From positions 252,001 through 316,000 of the forward strand of contig NC_013501.1 in NCBI RefSeq assembly GCF_000024845.1: DNA of 64,000 nt, given 5' to 3'. Shown here in pieces: positions 31,614 through 57,870 of the stretch (its first letter is position 1; the number at the start of each line of letters is the position of its first letter). Below the pieces are notes generated by a model, which did no database searches, was not told the DNA's origin, and saw nothing but the letters and a program-made list of their open reading frames with translations. The position numbers and the translations under genes are program-made. The DNA is from Rhodothermus marinus DSM 4252. Its GTDB lineage: Bacteria > Bacteroidota > Rhodothermia > Rhodothermales > Rhodothermaceae.

Positions 31614-31922
31614 ATGAAGACCCTGATTCCGCGAGAGCAGCTCGAACAGGTGGCCCGGCGCTTTCGGCTGCTGGGCGATCCGGTGCGGCTGGAGATCCTG
31701 AACCTTTTGCACGTGCGGGGCGAGATGACCGTACAGGATCTGGTGGCGGCCACCGGGCAGAGCCAGGCAAACGTGAGCAAGCACCTCCGGTTGCTCCGTG
31801 AGGCCGGACTGGTGGCCCGCCGCCAGGAAGGGCCCTATGCGTACTACCGGATCAACGATCCGATGCTGGCGGCCTTGTGCGTGCTCGTCTGCAGTCAGGT
31901 GCCGGAAGCCACCGCGCTATAG
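31614..31922 (+). CDS. ArsR/SmtB-family transcriptional regulator
   Basis: This 102-residue winged-helix repressor has RRFRLLGDPVRLEILNLL and the recognition helix QSQANVSKHLRLLREAGLV, then a wing GPYAYYRI. It lacks the ELCVCDL metal site of ArsR/CadC, but has a vicinal pair Cys89/Cys93 (CVLVC) in the C-terminal helix. Sulfur-responsive members (BigR, SqrR) use a cysteine pair elsewhere. Placement opposite the sulfur unit suggests control by persulfide or redox state through Cys89/Cys93; this is inference. Its stop codon abuts a MITE-like element. Confidence 0.88.
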   Translation: MKTLIPREQLEQVARRFRLLGDPVRLEILNLLHVRGEMTVQDLVAATGQSQANVSKHLRLLREAGLVARRQEGPYAYYRINDPMLAALCVLVCSQVPEATAL

Positions 31923-32366
31923 AACTTATCCGGAAAACAGGGGGAGATCTGGTAGGCCAGTGCTTTGCGCTGCGTCTCATATGGAATCGCTGATTTACCA
32001 GTGCATGGAGGGTGCCACACCTCGAGTGGTGGACGTGATCCGGTGGGTATGATCGGGCGGACACAGGGGTCCGCCCCTACGTGGTAGGAAGGTCGTCGTT
32101 TGCCCGGTAGGGGCGCACCGCAGTGTGCGCCCGTGCTTTCTCACATGCACTATGATTTCCCGGAATTCGTATCAGAAGCACGGGTTTGTAGTAAGCCACG
32201 AAGGCGCCAGCCAGAGTGGCGTCACCCGAGACGGCACTCCGCTTCGCTCCGTGCCTGACTACGAGCGCGCTGGTCGTGCTTCAAACGGCAGGCTGTAAAG
32301 CTCAGCGAAGCGCTATGCAGGTCGAAATCGCGAACTCCTTCAAGATTATTTTTCGGATGACTTCTG
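31920..32366. mobile_element. MITE-like element, copy 1 (interrupted)
   Basis: Left part 31920-31974 and right part 32172-32366 match copy 2 (37055-37296) at roughly 85%, with the terminal sequences TAGAACTTATCCGG at the left and ATTTTTCGGATGACTTCT at the right. These ends are inverted repeats of each other with few mismatches. The middle (about 31975-32171) is an unrelated insertion. No transposase is encoded. The element overlaps the arsR stop on the left and supplies the last codons (about SSEK and stop) of the convergent protease gene on the right. This entry also accounts for the 423-bp stretch without a gene. Confidence 0.75.
31975..32171. repeat. REP/BIME-like double hairpin nested in the MITE
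   Basis: About 197 bp absent from the other MITE copy. It holds two 8-bp hairpins with 6-nt loops: GGGCGGAC/GTCCGCCC (32055-32076) and GGGCGCAC/GTGCGCCC (32111-32132). They face each other with CCCCTAC after the first and GTAGGGG before the second, the head-to-head layout of REP pairs. Confidence 0.65.
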
Positions 32367-34883
32367 GTCAATGAGCGCACAGCCGGGATCGTAGGTGGCT
32401 TCCAGCAGCCGGCGGGGCCTTTCCAGTACCTGTTCCAGCAGACCGATCGGCGCGCCGGGGGGCAGCGCCAGTTCCGGGGCCCCCGGCTCGTCGGGCGTGT
32501 AGGGACGCTCTAGGAAGCGCCGGATCCAGTCGCGATGGAAACGGCGGTGGGCCCGGGTGGCCGCGTCGGTGCCCGGGTTTTGCGTGAGCCAGTCGGCCAA
32601 CCGGCGCAGGTGGGCTTCCAGCTCGACGCGCACGTCCACGGGCGTGCGGGCGTCCCGCGCCCGTTCCAGCAGGCCGGCCGTCCAGGCCGTCTGCACCACG
32701 CGCTGCAGGTGAGCGTCGTAGGGATCGTCGGGCACGGGCGCAGCCCAGACGTTTCGGCTGACCTGCTCCAGCACCTCGCTTAGCGAGGGAAGCGACGGAT
32801 CCTGCAGGGCCTGATCGTGCAGGCGGCTCAGCCGTTCCGGTTGGAGCAGCAGGTCGAACACCTGTCGGGCGGCCGCCTTGGCTGGCGCGACCGGATCGAA
32901 CAGCGGAGCCGTCTGGCGGGCAAACAGCTCGCGGTGCGCCGGATAGCCCGGCGGGCGCGGCGGAATGAGCCCGCGCAGGGTTTCGGGAAGGCGCAGCGTG
33001 GCGGGCTGCACGATCGTGAGCAGGGCTTCGAGCGCCGCCCGTTGCGTGGCACCCGGAACCGGGCGCACCACCGGCGCTTCGGGCATATCCGGCGTGCGCA
33101 CCGCGTACGTGTAGAACGCGCCGCCGAGCAGCTTGACCGTGGCCTCGGTCTGATACCGGTGCCAGAGGTAGATGGGCACCAGCACTTCTTCGAGCGTGGC
33201 CAGCGGACGTCCTGCCCGCAGGTTCCGGAGGCCAAAGCGCTCCAACGCCACCTTGCGTACCTGCAGCTCGCGGTGCAGGGCCGCGACGGCGTCGGTGCCG
33301 TTGTCCCACAGGTGCGCCAGCGGATGGGCCCCGCCCGGCGGCCGCGCGTCGGCGTCGGTGATGAAATGCAGGCCCTGGCGTGCGGCCTCTTCCAGAATGG
33401 CTTCCAGCGCGGCCGTCTCGTCGGTGCCGGGCGGGAATTCGCTGTAGGCGTAGCGAATGGCCACTTTGTCCCAGGCGCCGATGCCCGTATCATAGGCTTC
33501 CGAAACATCCAGCAAGCCGTCGGGGCGCACGCGCACGTAGGGCGCCGGATAGTCCATGACCGAGGCGCGGTCGTTCACCGAGGCGGCGAAGTTGTGTTGC
33601 AGGCCCAGCGTGTGGCCCACTTCGTGGGCGGCCAGTTGCCGGATGCGGGCCAGCGCCAGCTGCAGCATGGGGTCGGATTCAGGCGGATAGCCGTGGGCAT
33701 GCGCGCTGTCGTAGGGAGCCAGCAGGCCCTCGAAGATCAGGTAGTCCTGGCGGATGCGCAGCGAGCCCAGCGTCACGTGGCCCTTGATGATCTCGCCCGT
33801 GCGCGGATCGACGATCGTACGGCCGTAGCTCCAGCCGCGCGTGGCCCGGTGCACCCACTGGATCACGTTGTAGCGTACGTCGAGCGGATCGGCCGTGTCG
33901 GGCAGCACCTCCACGCGGAAGGCGTTGCGGAAACCGGCTGCCTCGAACGCCTCGGCCCACCACGAAGCGCCATCAATCAGTGCCTGACGGATCGGCTCAG
34001 GTGCGCCGGGGTCCACATAGTAGACGATGGGCTTTACCGGCTCGCTGACCGGCGCGTTCGGGTCTTTTTTCTGGAGTCGATGTCGGACGATCCACCGCCG
34101 GGCCAGCGGCTCGCCTACCGGACTCGTGTAATCGTAGAACGTGATGGAAAACAGGCCACTCCGCGGATCGTGCGCCCGGGGCCGATAGCCCGGTGGCGGC
34201 AGGGCCACAAACATCAGGCGCTGGCGCAGCGTGACGTGCTCGGGCACGGCCGCTACCTGACGCACGAAGCGACCCGGCTGCTCGCTCGAAAACGTGAGCA
34301 GCGCTTCGATGACCGTGTTGCGGGGAAAGGCCTTGACCGCCTCGAAAAGGATCGTGCTCCGGTCGCGGTCCAGCCGAAACGTACCCTGATCGGTCTGGCG
34401 CAGACGGCCGACCACGTCCATGGCGTCGTGCAGGGCAAAGTCGGTGGCATCGATCAGAAACCGATCGCCCTGGCGGGCCACGATCGGAAAGCGCCACAGC
34501 ACGGAGGCTGCAAAGGCTTCTTCGACGGCCCGTCGGGCCGGCGCATCGCCTTCGAGTGCCCGGTAGGTCAGATTGGGCGCATAGAGCAGGATCTGGTTGC
34601 CGGTCCGTCGGAACTGCACGACGCGTTCCTCGCCGAACAATCCCCGGTCGAGCCCCACATCGTTGGAGCCCAGTCCGGCCGGGAGCGCCGGCACCAGCAA
34701 CAGGTCTGCGCCCGAGGGGATGACTTCCAGGTAGAGCTTGCCTTTCAGCGTGTCGAGGTACACCGGAATCAGGCCGTCCCGGCGGACCATATCGCGGGTG
34801 AACGTGTCGATGTCCGGCAGTTGCGCAACCGACAGGTGAACCCAGAGCAGCGACAGCGTCGCGAGCAGGAGGCGGCGCAGCAT
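32346..34883 (-). CDS. Exported zinc metalloprotease, metzincin-like (DUF5117/DUF4953 type)
   Basis: This 845-residue protein has a signal peptide (LLLATLSLLWVHLSVAQ) and the domain order of the large Bacteroidota zinc-dependent metalloproteases: an N-terminal beta-rich domain, then the catalytic core. HEVGHTLGLQH at 420-430 fits HExxHxxGxxH and ASVMDY about 15 residues later is the Met-turn, so the enzyme looks like an active metzincin. The C-terminal third is helical. Its final codons come from the MITE copy 1. It is divergent from the S9 peptidase with a shared 113-bp gap holding a perfect 14-bp palindrome. Probably periplasmic or secreted peptide degradation. Confidence 0.88.
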   Translation of the reverse strand: MLRRLLLATLSLLWVHLSVAQLPDIDTFTRDMVRRDGLIPVYLDTLKGKLYLEVIPSGADLLLVPALPAGLGSNDVGLDRGLFGEERVVQFRRTGNQILLYAPNLTYRALEGDAPARRAVEEAFAASVLWRFPIVARQGDRFLIDATDFALHDAMDVVGRLRQTDQGTFRLDRDRSTILFEAVKAFPRNTVIEALLTFSSEQPGRFVRQVAAVPEHVTLRQRLMFVALPPPGYRPRAHDPRSGLFSITFYDYTSPVGEPLARRWIVRHRLQKKDPNAPVSEPVKPIVYYVDPGAPEPIRQALIDGASWWAEAFEAAGFRNAFRVEVLPDTADPLDVRYNVIQWVHRATRGWSYGRTIVDPRTGEIIKGHVTLGSLRIRQDYLIFEGLLAPYDSAHAHGYPPESDPMLQLALARIRQLAAHEVGHTLGLQHNFAASVNDRASVMDYPAPYVRVRPDGLLDVSEAYDTGIGAWDKVAIRYAYSEFPPGTDETAALEAILEEAARQGLHFITDADARPPGGAHPLAHLWDNGTDAVAALHRELQVRKVALERFGLRNLRAGRPLATLEEVLVPIYLWHRYQTEATVKLLGGAFYTYAVRTPDMPEAPVVRPVPGATQRAALEALLTIVQPATLRLPETLRGLIPPRPPGYPAHRELFARQTAPLFDPVAPAKAAARQVFDLLLQPERLSRLHDQALQDPSLPSLSEVLEQVSRNVWAAPVPDDPYDAHLQRVVQTAWTAGLLERARDARTPVDVRVELEAHLRRLADWLTQNPGTDAATRAHRRFHRDWIRRFLERPYTPDEPGAPELALPPGAPIGLLEQVLERPRRLLEATYDPGCALIDQKSSEK

Positions 34884-34957
34884 GGCACTTTCCTGATTGG
34901 ATTGCTTTGTCCGGTGGAAGATACGGTCTGCATGAAAATAACAGATTGCGTATTTTT

Positions 34958-34971
34958 AGAAAGCGCTTTCT
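34958..34971. promoter_or_regulatory. Perfect 14-bp palindrome in the divergent peptidase promoter
   Basis: AGAAAGCGCTTTCT sits 26 bp before the S9 peptidase start and 75 bp from the metalloprotease start. The preceding TATTTTTA at 34951 resembles a -7 box, so the palindrome would cover the transcription start. The core AGCGCT is that of LacI-type operators, as at 45052. Confidence 0.5.
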
Positions 34972-34996
34972 GGAAAAACCAGACCTGCAGGCCGCC

Positions 34997-37057
34997 ATGC
35001 GTCGCGCCCTTCTTTTTCTGCTGTTTCTGGTGGTGATCGCTCCGGCAAGCCATGCGCAATCGGATCGGTTGACGCTGGAGCGCTACCTGGAATGGGAAGA
35101 CGTCAACGATCCGCAGATTTCGCCCGATGGGCGGCGCATTGTTTTCACGCGCCGCTGGGTGGACCAACAGAAAGATCGCTGGCAGTCGGCGCTCTGGATT
35201 ATGAACGCCGACGGTTCGCAGCAGCGCTTTCTGGTCGAAGGCCGTTCACCGCGCTGGTCGCCGGACGGGACACGGATCGCCTTTATTGCAAATGATGCCG
35301 AAGGCCGTCCGCAGATTTTCGTCAAGTGGGTCGATCTTCCCGAGCCGCCCACGCAGTTGACGCACCTGACGGAGGCGCCGGGCAGCATTACCTGGTCGCC
35401 GGACGGCCGGATGATCGCCTTCACGATGAACGTGCCGGTCGAGGTGCGCTGGAACGTCGACTTACCCAAACCGCCCGAAGGCGCCACGTGGACCAAACCG
35501 CCCCGGCTGGTGCGGCGTCTGCACTACCGGGCCGATCGCCGCGGCTTCATGGAGGAAGCCTACACGCACCTGTTCGTGATTCCGGCCGAGGGCGGCACAC
35601 CCCGCCAGCTCACCGAGGGCACCTGGCACGTGGGACCGCGCTTCGACGGACTCCCGGCCGGGGCAACGCTGAGCTGGACGCCGGACGGCCGCACGATCGT
35701 CTTCGACGGCTTCAAAGCCTCGGCCGACTCGGTGGATCGCAATTACCGGAACGCCCACCTCTACGCCGTCGATGTGGCCACGCGGCAGCTTCGCCAGCTC
35801 ACCCGAGAGCCGGGGCGCTGGACGCAGCCGGCCGTCTCGCCGGACGGACGCTGGGTAGCCTTTACCGGCTATGCCGAAACACGCCAGACCTACCACGCCG
35901 CCGATCTCTGGCTGATGCCGCTCGACGGCAGCGCCGCGCCGCGCAATCTGACCCGAGCGCTCGACCGGGACGTCAGCAATCTGCACTGGGCGCCGGACGG
36001 CTCGGGCGTCTACTTCACGATCGACGACCGGGGCACGCGCAACGTCTACTTCGCTTCGGTCCGCGGCGAGGTGCGGCAGGTCACGCGCGGCGTGCACATG
36101 CTGACGCTCTCGTCGATTTCCCGCAACGGCGTGGCCGTCGGCGTGCGCACGAGCTACCACGAGCCGGACGACGTGGTGCGCTTTGCGCTGAATCGGCCCG
36201 ACCAGATCGAACGGCTGACCGCCGTCAACGATGACGTGCTGCAGGATGTGAAGCTGGGCGAGGTCGAGGAGATCTGGTACGCCTCGCGCGACGGCACGCG
36301 CATTCAAGGCTGGATCGTCAAGCCACCGGACTTTGATCCTGCTCAGAAGTATCCGCTGATCCTGCACATCCACGGCGGCCCCCATGCCATGTACAACGTG
36401 GGCTTCAACTATTCCTTCCAGAATTTCGCCGCCAACGGCTACGTCGTGCTCTACACGAACCCGCGCGGAAGCACGGGCTACGGCACCGAATTCGGCGCGG
36501 CCATCAGTCAGGCCTATCCGGGCGTGGACCATGAAGACCTGATGGCCGGGGTCGATGCGGTGCTGGCGCGGGGCTACATCGACCCGGATCGGCTGTTCGT
36601 GACCGGATGCAGTGGCGGGGGCGTGCTTTCGAGCTGGGCCATCGGCCAGACCGATCGGTTTGCGGCGGCCGCCGTGCGCTGCCCGGTCACCGACTGGATC
36701 AGCATGGCCGGCACGACCGACGTTCCGCTGTTCACGTTCAACTGGTTCGACCGGCCCTTCTGGGAGGATCCTTCGGAGTGGCTGGCCCGCTCGCCGCTGA
36801 TGCTGGCCGGCAAGGTCAAAACGCCCACGCTGCTGATGACCGGCGAGCTGGACCTGCGCACGCCGATGAGCCAGACCGAAGAGTACTACGTGGCGCTGAA
36901 GATGCGGGGCGTACCGGTCGTGCTGCTTCGCTTCAACGAGGAGTACCACGGGACGGGCTCGCGGCCGTCCAACTTCATGCGGACGCAGGCCTACATCATG
37001 GACTGGTTCGAGAAGAAAGGCCGTATTCCGGGCGTGACCGTCGAAGCGGAAGAGTAG
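34997..37057 (+). CDS. S9 family prolyl oligopeptidase-type peptidase
   Basis: This 686-residue exported serine peptidase has a signal peptide (FLLFLVVIAPASHAQ), an N-terminal propeller with PD40-type blades (ISPDGRRIVFTR, WSPDGTRIAF, WSPDGRMIAF, VSPDGRWVAF, WAPDGSGVYF) and a C-terminal alpha/beta-hydrolase domain. The catalytic triad is Ser539 (GCSGGG), Asp619 (GELDLRTP) and His651 (EEYHGTG), close to acylaminoacyl-peptidase and DPP-type enzymes. The ATG at 34997 was taken over a frame start at 34907 because it begins the signal peptide. A MITE-like element starts at its stop codon. Confidence 0.93.
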   Translation: MRRALLFLLFLVVIAPASHAQSDRLTLERYLEWEDVNDPQISPDGRRIVFTRRWVDQQKDRWQSALWIMNADGSQQRFLVEGRSPRWSPDGTRIAFIANDAEGRPQIFVKWVDLPEPPTQLTHLTEAPGSITWSPDGRMIAFTMNVPVEVRWNVDLPKPPEGATWTKPPRLVRRLHYRADRRGFMEEAYTHLFVIPAEGGTPRQLTEGTWHVGPRFDGLPAGATLSWTPDGRTIVFDGFKASADSVDRNYRNAHLYAVDVATRQLRQLTREPGRWTQPAVSPDGRWVAFTGYAETRQTYHAADLWLMPLDGSAAPRNLTRALDRDVSNLHWAPDGSGVYFTIDDRGTRNVYFASVRGEVRQVTRGVHMLTLSSISRNGVAVGVRTSYHEPDDVVRFALNRPDQIERLTAVNDDVLQDVKLGEVEEIWYASRDGTRIQGWIVKPPDFDPAQKYPLILHIHGGPHAMYNVGFNYSFQNFAANGYVVLYTNPRGSTGYGTEFGAAISQAYPGVDHEDLMAGVDAVLARGYIDPDRLFVTGCSGGGVLSSWAIGQTDRFAAAAVRCPVTDWISMAGTTDVPLFTFNWFDRPFWEDPSEWLARSPLMLAGKVKTPTLLMTGELDLRTPMSQTEEYYVALKMRGVPVVLLRFNEEYHGTGSRPSNFMRTQAYIMDWFEKKGRIPGVTVEAEE

Positions 37058-37296
37058 AACTTATCCGAAAAACAAGAGGGAGACCTGGTAAGCCAGGGCT
37101 TTGCGCTGCGCGTCAGAAGCACGGGTTTGTAGTACGCCACGAAGGCGTCAGCCGGAGTGGCGTCACCCGAGACGGCACTCCGCTGCGCTTCGTGCCTGAC
37201 TACAAGCGCGTTGGTCGCGTTGCAAACGGCAGGCTATAAAGCTATACAGGTCGAAATCGCGAACTTCTCCGACACTATTTTTCGGATGACTTCTAG
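37055..37296. mobile_element. MITE-like element, copy 2 (intact, 242 bp)
   Basis: Left end TAGAACTTATCCGAAAAAC and right end ATTTTTCGGATGACTTCTAG are about 20-bp terminal inverted repeats with three or four mismatches, bounded by TA. Inside are two short stems (ACGCCAC/GTGGCGT and GGCAC/GTGCC) and a short open frame that is kept in copy 1 (DGTPLRxVPDY, then NGRL and stop). The left end is the stop codon of the S9 peptidase and the right end stops 8 bp before the sbcD stop. No transposase. Confidence 0.78.
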
Positions 37297-41734: not shown

Positions 41735-42057
41735 GGATCGTTGGCGTTCAGAAAAAGTGGACGTTCTCTGCGAAGGTTAAGCAGCGCTTTCTGCTCATTA
41801 CGGCAGTGCAATCATCCAGCTCGTATGCGGTTCAAAATCAACCCTTATTGCAGACGCTTTTTTGACGGCATTTCGCTCATGCTTCGTGCCGGACTACGAA
41901 CACGTTTTCAGTGGCCGCACGGCTGTCCCGGCCTGCCTTATCTTAACGCACGCGCCGCCCTTGTTCGCGCAGGCCGCCGGTGGGGTTCCAGCGGCGCACC
42001 CTTTCGGCGTCTGAAGCGTTGGAAGCGCGTCTGTCAACCGGTAGCCAGCTTCGGATC
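41735..42057. other. Intergenic region with a repeat fragment
   Basis: 323 bp between the divergent lpxH-like and rhomboid genes. From about 41861 to 41903 it carries a fragment of the MITE core (GACGGCATTTCGCTC, then GCTTCGTGCCGGACTACGAA). An imperfect palindrome around AGCAGCGCTTTCTGCT lies at 41780-41795. No gene is seen; the open frame ahead of the rhomboid start lacks a plausible product. Confidence 0.6.
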
Positions 42058-57728: not shown

Positions 57729-57745
57729 CTGAAGACTGTTTGGTG

Positions 57746-57870
57746 CAAGCCGCGAAGGCGCAGCCGAAGTGGCGCGTTGTCTTGACGGCACTTCGCTGCG
57801 CTTCGTGCCTGACTACGAGCCCAGACGCGCTGGAGCAAGCCGCAAGGGCATAGCCGAAGTGGTGCCGGGA
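57746..57870. repeat. Repeat fragment related to the MITE core, with internal tandem unit
   Basis: GACGGCACTTCGCTGCGCTTC, then GTGCCTGACTACGAGC, matches the core of the 37.1-kb element, but the terminal inverted repeats are missing. A ~28-bp unit (GCAAGCCGCGAAGGCGCAGC, then CGAAGTGG) is present twice (about 57752 and 57833). It lies in the leader of the first amylase gene. Confidence 0.6.

What the first reader, a model, noticed from the sequence alone, without database searches (positions are those of the whole stretch)
31920..37296. Undescribed MITE-like element in two copies flanking a peptidase pair
Two ~242-bp copies (one carrying an insert) share ~20-bp terminal inverted repeats (TAGAACTTATCCGAAAAA at one end, its near-complement at the other), conserved internal stems and no transposase. 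Both left ends sit exactly on the TAG stop codon of the upstream gene, and the right end of copy 1 supplies the last codons of the facing gene. Core fragments also occur near 41.86 and 57.75 kb. The copies are in the same orientation and could recombine, deleting or circularising the 5 kb with the two peptidases.
Basis: seen in the sequence. Interest (0 to 1): 0.7.

Follow-up and report, generated by a model that had tools for sequence, protein, structure and literature searches.

The report
IS5-driven mini-transposon in Rhodothermus marinus
The two repeats are genuine small non-autonomous transposons (MITEs) evidently moved by a common type of bacterial insertion sequence; they land on TA dinucleotides and, at gene ends, rebuild the stop codon they hit, so this is a well-resolved new member of a known kind.

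Summary
Confirmed and explained. The window is from Rhodothermus marinus DSM 4252. The two repeats (31922-32364, 37057-37293) are copies of a ~237-bp MITE with about ten near-full-length copies in this genome (chromosome and plasmid), and more in two close relatives. Most full copies have TA duplications. Both window sites are empty in a relative; copy 2 gives a perfect TA-duplication comparison. The likely autonomous partner is an 837-bp IS5-family element (IS427-group-like: two overlapping transposase frames, TA duplication) present in six near-identical copies in that relative. It has the same two asymmetric ends as the MITE (GAACTTATCCGGAAAA and GAAGTCATCCGAAAAA). DSM 4252 keeps only broken remnants of it, so its MITEs look stranded. 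The 'insert' in copy 1 is a second, more abundant MITE-like family with its own TCA duplication. The core fragments belong to a REP-like palindrome family in which MITE and IS copies often sit. The stop-codon coincidence follows from TA target plus leading G = TAG. Recombination loss of the peptidase pair is unsupported.

The parts
31920..31921 (.). TA target duplication, left of MITE copy 1 (part of the TAG stop of the ArsR-type gene)
31922..32364 (+). MITE copy 1 (443 bp including a nested 192-bp element)
   Evidence: site empty in relative G002, occupied by a variant copy in G005
31980..32171 (+). Nested second MITE-like element (E2), flanked by TCA/TCA (31977-31979, 32172-32174)
   Evidence: at least 40 matches each in G000, G002 and G005; 3-bp TNA duplications in many of the copies read
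32365..32366 (.). Decayed right target duplication of copy 1 (TG, ancestral TA)
   Evidence: G002 empty site CTCAGTAGTCAATGAG
32346..34883 (-). Met-zincin-type metallopeptidase (DUF4953/DUF5117); its last residues KSSEK and stop TAA come from the right end of MITE copy 1
31614..31922 (+). ArsR-type regulator whose TAG stop is TA duplication plus first base (G) of copy 1
34907..37057 (+). S9 prolyl-oligopeptidase-family peptidase whose TAG stop is TA duplication plus first base of copy 2
37055..37056 (.). TA target duplication, left of MITE copy 2
37057..37293 (+). MITE copy 2 (237 bp, intact)
   Evidence: empty in G002, and absent at this place in G001, G003, G004 and G005
37294..37295 (.). 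TA target duplication, right of MITE copy 2
37121..37211 (+). REP-like palindromic core carried by the MITE (also found without MITE ends)
57738..57820 (+). Stand-alone core repeat (no MITE ends seen)
41864..41906 (+). Core-repeat fragment

Best explanation
The repeats are copies of a ~237-bp MITE made of the two ends of an IS5-family (IS427-group-like) insertion sequence around an unrelated body that contains a REP-like palindrome. Inferred mechanism: the IS transposase, made by a -1 frameshift between two overlapping frames, binds the asymmetric ends (GAACTTATCCGGAAAA / GAAGTCATCCGAAAAA) of either the IS or the MITE and inserts it at TA, duplicating TA. Because both element ends begin with G, each junction reads TAG; an insertion into the TA of a stop codon therefore restores a stop and leaves the gene intact, and such insertions survive selection. 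Shown here: shared ends, TA duplications, empty sites, the IS with recently amplified copies in a relative, and no intact copy of that IS in DSM 4252. Inferred: that this transposase moved the MITE, the frameshift, and the selective reason for gene-end positions.
For: Ends and TA duplications in most full copies. Six 837-bp IS copies in G002, ~99.6-99.8% identical, and one 839-bp copy in G005 carry the same end pair; four of the six and the G005 copy are flanked by TA on both sides. Outside the terminal ~16 bp, MITE and IS show no significant similarity. The transposase frames pass the NF033580 IS5 cutoff (110.4 and 128.4 against 110) and can join by a -1 shift at AAAAAGGGGGG. Transposase relatives in other phyla have the related ends TA|GAAGYYATCTCATAAA. 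Empty sites at both window positions in G002. Only remnants of this IS type are left in DSM 4252.
Against: No transposition was observed, and DSM 4252 has no intact partner today. The partner was found in G002 and G005, which also hold the MITE, so linkage is by ends and duplication type, not by experiment. Some copies lack a clean TA duplication (L005, L006, L013, L054, L058 and others). The other strong copies in DSM 4252 are 74-92% identical to copy 2, so most insertions look old. The stop-codon pattern was not tested against a formal null.
Confidence: 0.93

Rival explanations
1. MITE mobilised by an IS630/Tc1-like (TA-inserting) transposase.
For: TA duplication fits; DDE_3 transposases of that type exist in the genome (L033 9406-10515, L031 4544-5598).
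Against: An IS5-family element with both exact asymmetric ends and TA duplication exists in the same genus; no IS630-like element with these ends was seen, although the ends of the DDE_3 elements were not mapped.
Confidence: 0.03
2. Ancient tandem or segmental duplication of intergenic DNA conserved with the flanking genes, not mobility.
For: Two same-orientation copies 5 kb apart; one other copy (L009) is shared with G002 with matching flanks.
Against: Precise empty sites for both window copies; copies dispersed over chromosome and plasmid with different flanks and TA duplications.
Confidence: 0.01
3. The unit is mainly a REP/BIME-type palindrome, with the IS ends as secondary additions.
For: The core occurs alone and in arrays; MITE and IS copies lie in or beside cores.
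Against: Full copies share both IS ends and TA duplications outside the core; no Y1 (RAYT) transposase in any MITE-bearing genome.
Confidence: 0.1

Closest known systems
IS5 family, IS427 group
   Same: 837 bp, two overlapping transposase frames with a frameshift motif, 2-bp duplication; published members are 832-865 bp, most with 2-bp repeats (PMC3281130)
   Different: Group assignment rests on size, frame layout and duplication; no tree against group type elements and no ISfinder check was made
Bacterial MITEs with TA termini, e.g. RUP (pneumococcus, moved by IS630-Spn1) and Correia elements (Neisseria)
   Same: Short, non-coding, inverted ends, TA at the termini, strongly folded; RUP ends match a resident IS (PMC2229807)
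   Different: Unrelated sequence; IS5-family partner; carries a REP-like palindrome; junctions read TAG
REP/BIME repeats as IS targets
   Same: Palindromic intergenic repeats in which IS elements preferentially insert (PMC1525189)
   Different: No REP-associated Y1 transposase found in the MITE-bearing genomes; the palindrome is also carried inside the MITE

Membership tests
MITE of an IS5-family (IS427-like) element | Short, no transposase | tested here: met
   Copy 2 is 237 bp
MITE of an IS5-family (IS427-like) element | Ends shared with an autonomous element | tested here: met
   Left and right 16-mers match the 837-bp IS end for end
MITE of an IS5-family (IS427-like) element | Same target duplication as the partner (TA) | tested here: met
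MITE of an IS5-family (IS427-like) element | Multiple dispersed copies and empty sites | tested here: met
MITE of an IS5-family (IS427-like) element | Mobilised in trans by the partner transposase | not testable with these tools
   needs a transposition assay
IS5 family (partner) | IS5-type DDE transposase | tested here: met
   NF033580 above cutoff for both frames, DUF4096, DDE_Tnp_1
IS427 group (partner) | Two overlapping frames, ~830-865 bp, 2-bp duplication | tested here: met
   group features from PMC3281130; no phylogeny done
IS630/Tc1 | IS630-type transposase with matching ends | tested here: inconclusive
   Matching ends belong to an IS5 element; ends of the resident DDE_3 elements were not mapped
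REP/RAYT system (core) | Y1 REP-associated transposase in the genome | tested here: not met
   PF01797 absent in G000, G002 and G005

The most novel reading that the evidence does not exclude
Two unrelated MITE families in Rhodothermus (TA-type with leading G, and E2 with TNA duplications) share a gene-end niche because their target duplications rebuild stop codons (TAG; TAA/TGA), and both nest in a third, REP-like palindrome family, so that stop codons and palindromes act as a safe landing zone in a compact GC-rich genome.
Probability: 0.25. Interest if true: 0.45.

Novelty: new member of a known kind. Interest (0 to 1): 0.3.

Why it matters
It gives a well-resolved case in a deep-branching thermophile lineage: MITE, likely autonomous partner, empty sites, stranded state in one strain and recent IS amplification in another. 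It also shows how the element's own first base plus its TA duplication regenerates a stop codon, and how decay of one duplication then let a peptidase gain five residues from a transposon end. It mainly serves annotation of Rhodothermus genomes.

Tried and rejected
Looked for a full transposon with these ends in DSM 4252: only remnants on the plasmid (C2:99112 on) and fragments of 75 and 30 bp. Rfam on the region: no match. RAYT as mobiliser of the core: none in the MITE-bearing genomes. MITE in phage records: none; in plasmid records only R. marinus SG0.5JP17-172. Autonomous partner for the second element E2: the three G002 candidates with E2-like left ends look like further non-autonomous variants, one of them interrupted by an element with an IS4-like (Tn5-type) transposase.

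Full report
Source. The genome holding the window is 3,386,737 bp in two replicons of 3,261,604 and 125,133 bp, the size published for Rhodothermus marinus DSM 4252 (PMC3035238). G002, a same-genus genome with 95% identity over a 655-bp gene stretch, and G005 (its IS contig C170 has the length of WFPM01000170.1, MAG Rhodothermus sp. S012_61) are the close relatives used below.

Observation. Copy 2 is a 237-bp element at 37057-37293 with TA on both sides; copy 1 is a 443-bp version at 31922-32364 that contains a 192-bp insert. The ends are inverted but not identical: GAACTTATCCGRAAAA at the left and GAAGTCATCCGAAAAA at the right. Copy 2 finds 40 matches in its own genome, about ten of them near full length, two of these on the plasmid. 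The end motif gives 50 hits against 8 for a reversed control. Among 40 genomes, real matches occur only in DSM 4252, G002 and G005; four other Rhodothermus genomes and the rest of the order have none, apart from a 24-base chance match.

Mobility. In G002 the copy 2 site reads GAGGAGTAGCCGGGG where DSM 4252 has GAAGAGTA[MITE]TAGCCCG: a clean insertion with a TA duplication. The copy 1 site in G002 reads CTCAGTAGTCAATGAG; in DSM 4252 the right TA has become TG. G005 carries a longer variant at the copy 1 site. More distant relatives lack the element at both places. Most of the full copies examined in the three genomes have TA on both sides. One copy (L009) is shared with G002, with identical upstream flank.

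Partner. A truncated relative on the DSM 4252 plasmid led to an 837-bp element in G002 (six copies, ~99.6-99.8% identical) and an 839-bp one in G005. Its ends are the same asymmetric pair as the MITE, and beyond about 16 terminal bases the two share nothing significant. It encodes two overlapping frames (126 and 146 aa) that can join by a -1 shift at AAAAAGGGGGG. Both match NF033580 (IS5 family) above cutoff, and Pfam DUF4096 / DDE_Tnp_1. Size, frame layout and 2-bp duplication match the IS427 group as published (PMC3281130). Transposase relatives occur in many phyla, the nearest outside the genus in Rubrobacter (78%), and several of these have ends TA|GAAGYYATCTCATAAA. In DSM 4252 only the broken plasmid copy and short fragments remain, so the MITE appears stranded there.

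Stop codons. Both element ends begin with G after the TA duplication, so each clean junction reads TAG. An insertion into the TA of a stop codon therefore restores a stop. In the empty site of copy 1 the convergent ArsR-type and metallopeptidase genes overlap at that TA; in G005 the peptidase now stops at the junction (ALID*), in G002 it reads ALIDY*, and in DSM 4252 the decayed TG duplication lets it read on to ALIDQKSSEK*, the last five residues coming from the MITE end. Open frames of at least 100 codons end exactly on a junction TAG in six of 17 MITE copies examined and in one IS copy. This was not tested against a formal null.

Nested elements. The insert in copy 1 (31980-32171, TCA on both sides) belongs to a second family, E2, with at least 40 matches in each of the three genomes and 3-bp TNA duplications in many of the copies read. 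Its autonomous partner was not found. The palindromic core of the MITE (about 37121-37211) also occurs without MITE ends, alone and in arrays, including 57738-57820 and 41864-41906 in the window. Six MITE copies and one IS copy lie in or beside such cores, as known for REP repeats and IS elements elsewhere (PMC1525189). No Y1 transposase is present in the MITE-bearing genomes. Copy 2 folds far better than shuffles as single-stranded DNA (z = -7.1).

Recombination claim. The two copies share at most 30 identical bases in a row. The S9 peptidase gene is found in all six other Rhodothermus genomes searched and the metallopeptidase in five of six, with or without MITEs. There is no sign that the segment is lost or circularised.

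Verdict. A real, well-resolved MITE with an IS5-family partner: a new member of a known kind, with an instructive stop-codon detail. No description was found in the open literature searched; ISfinder was not available.

Noticed in passing
31980-32171 and many genome sites: Second MITE-like family E2 (~192 bp, ends TATGGGATCGCTGATTT / GAAATCGTA, TNA duplications, hairpins GGGCGGACACAGGGGTCCGCCC and GGGGCGCACCGCAGTGTGCGCCC), more abundant than the MITE in the finding; partner unknown.
   Followed up: partly
L200-L202 (G002): Further E2-like variants starting TATGTGATCGCTGATTTAC, one interrupted by an element with an IS4-like (Tn5-type) transposase.
   Followed up: partly
L037, L038 (DSM 4252 chromosome ~0.999-1.001 Mb and ~3.214 Mb): Clusters of REP-like core repeats, with MITE pieces at the first place and an E2 copy at the second.
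   Followed up: partly
L032 2613-3400 (plasmid): Broken IS5-family element directly beside what look like restriction-system genes and near an IS4-like element.
   Followed up: partly
L083 (G005): MITE copy at the copy 1 site contains tandemly repeated cores, so the palindrome can expand inside the MITE.
   Followed up: no
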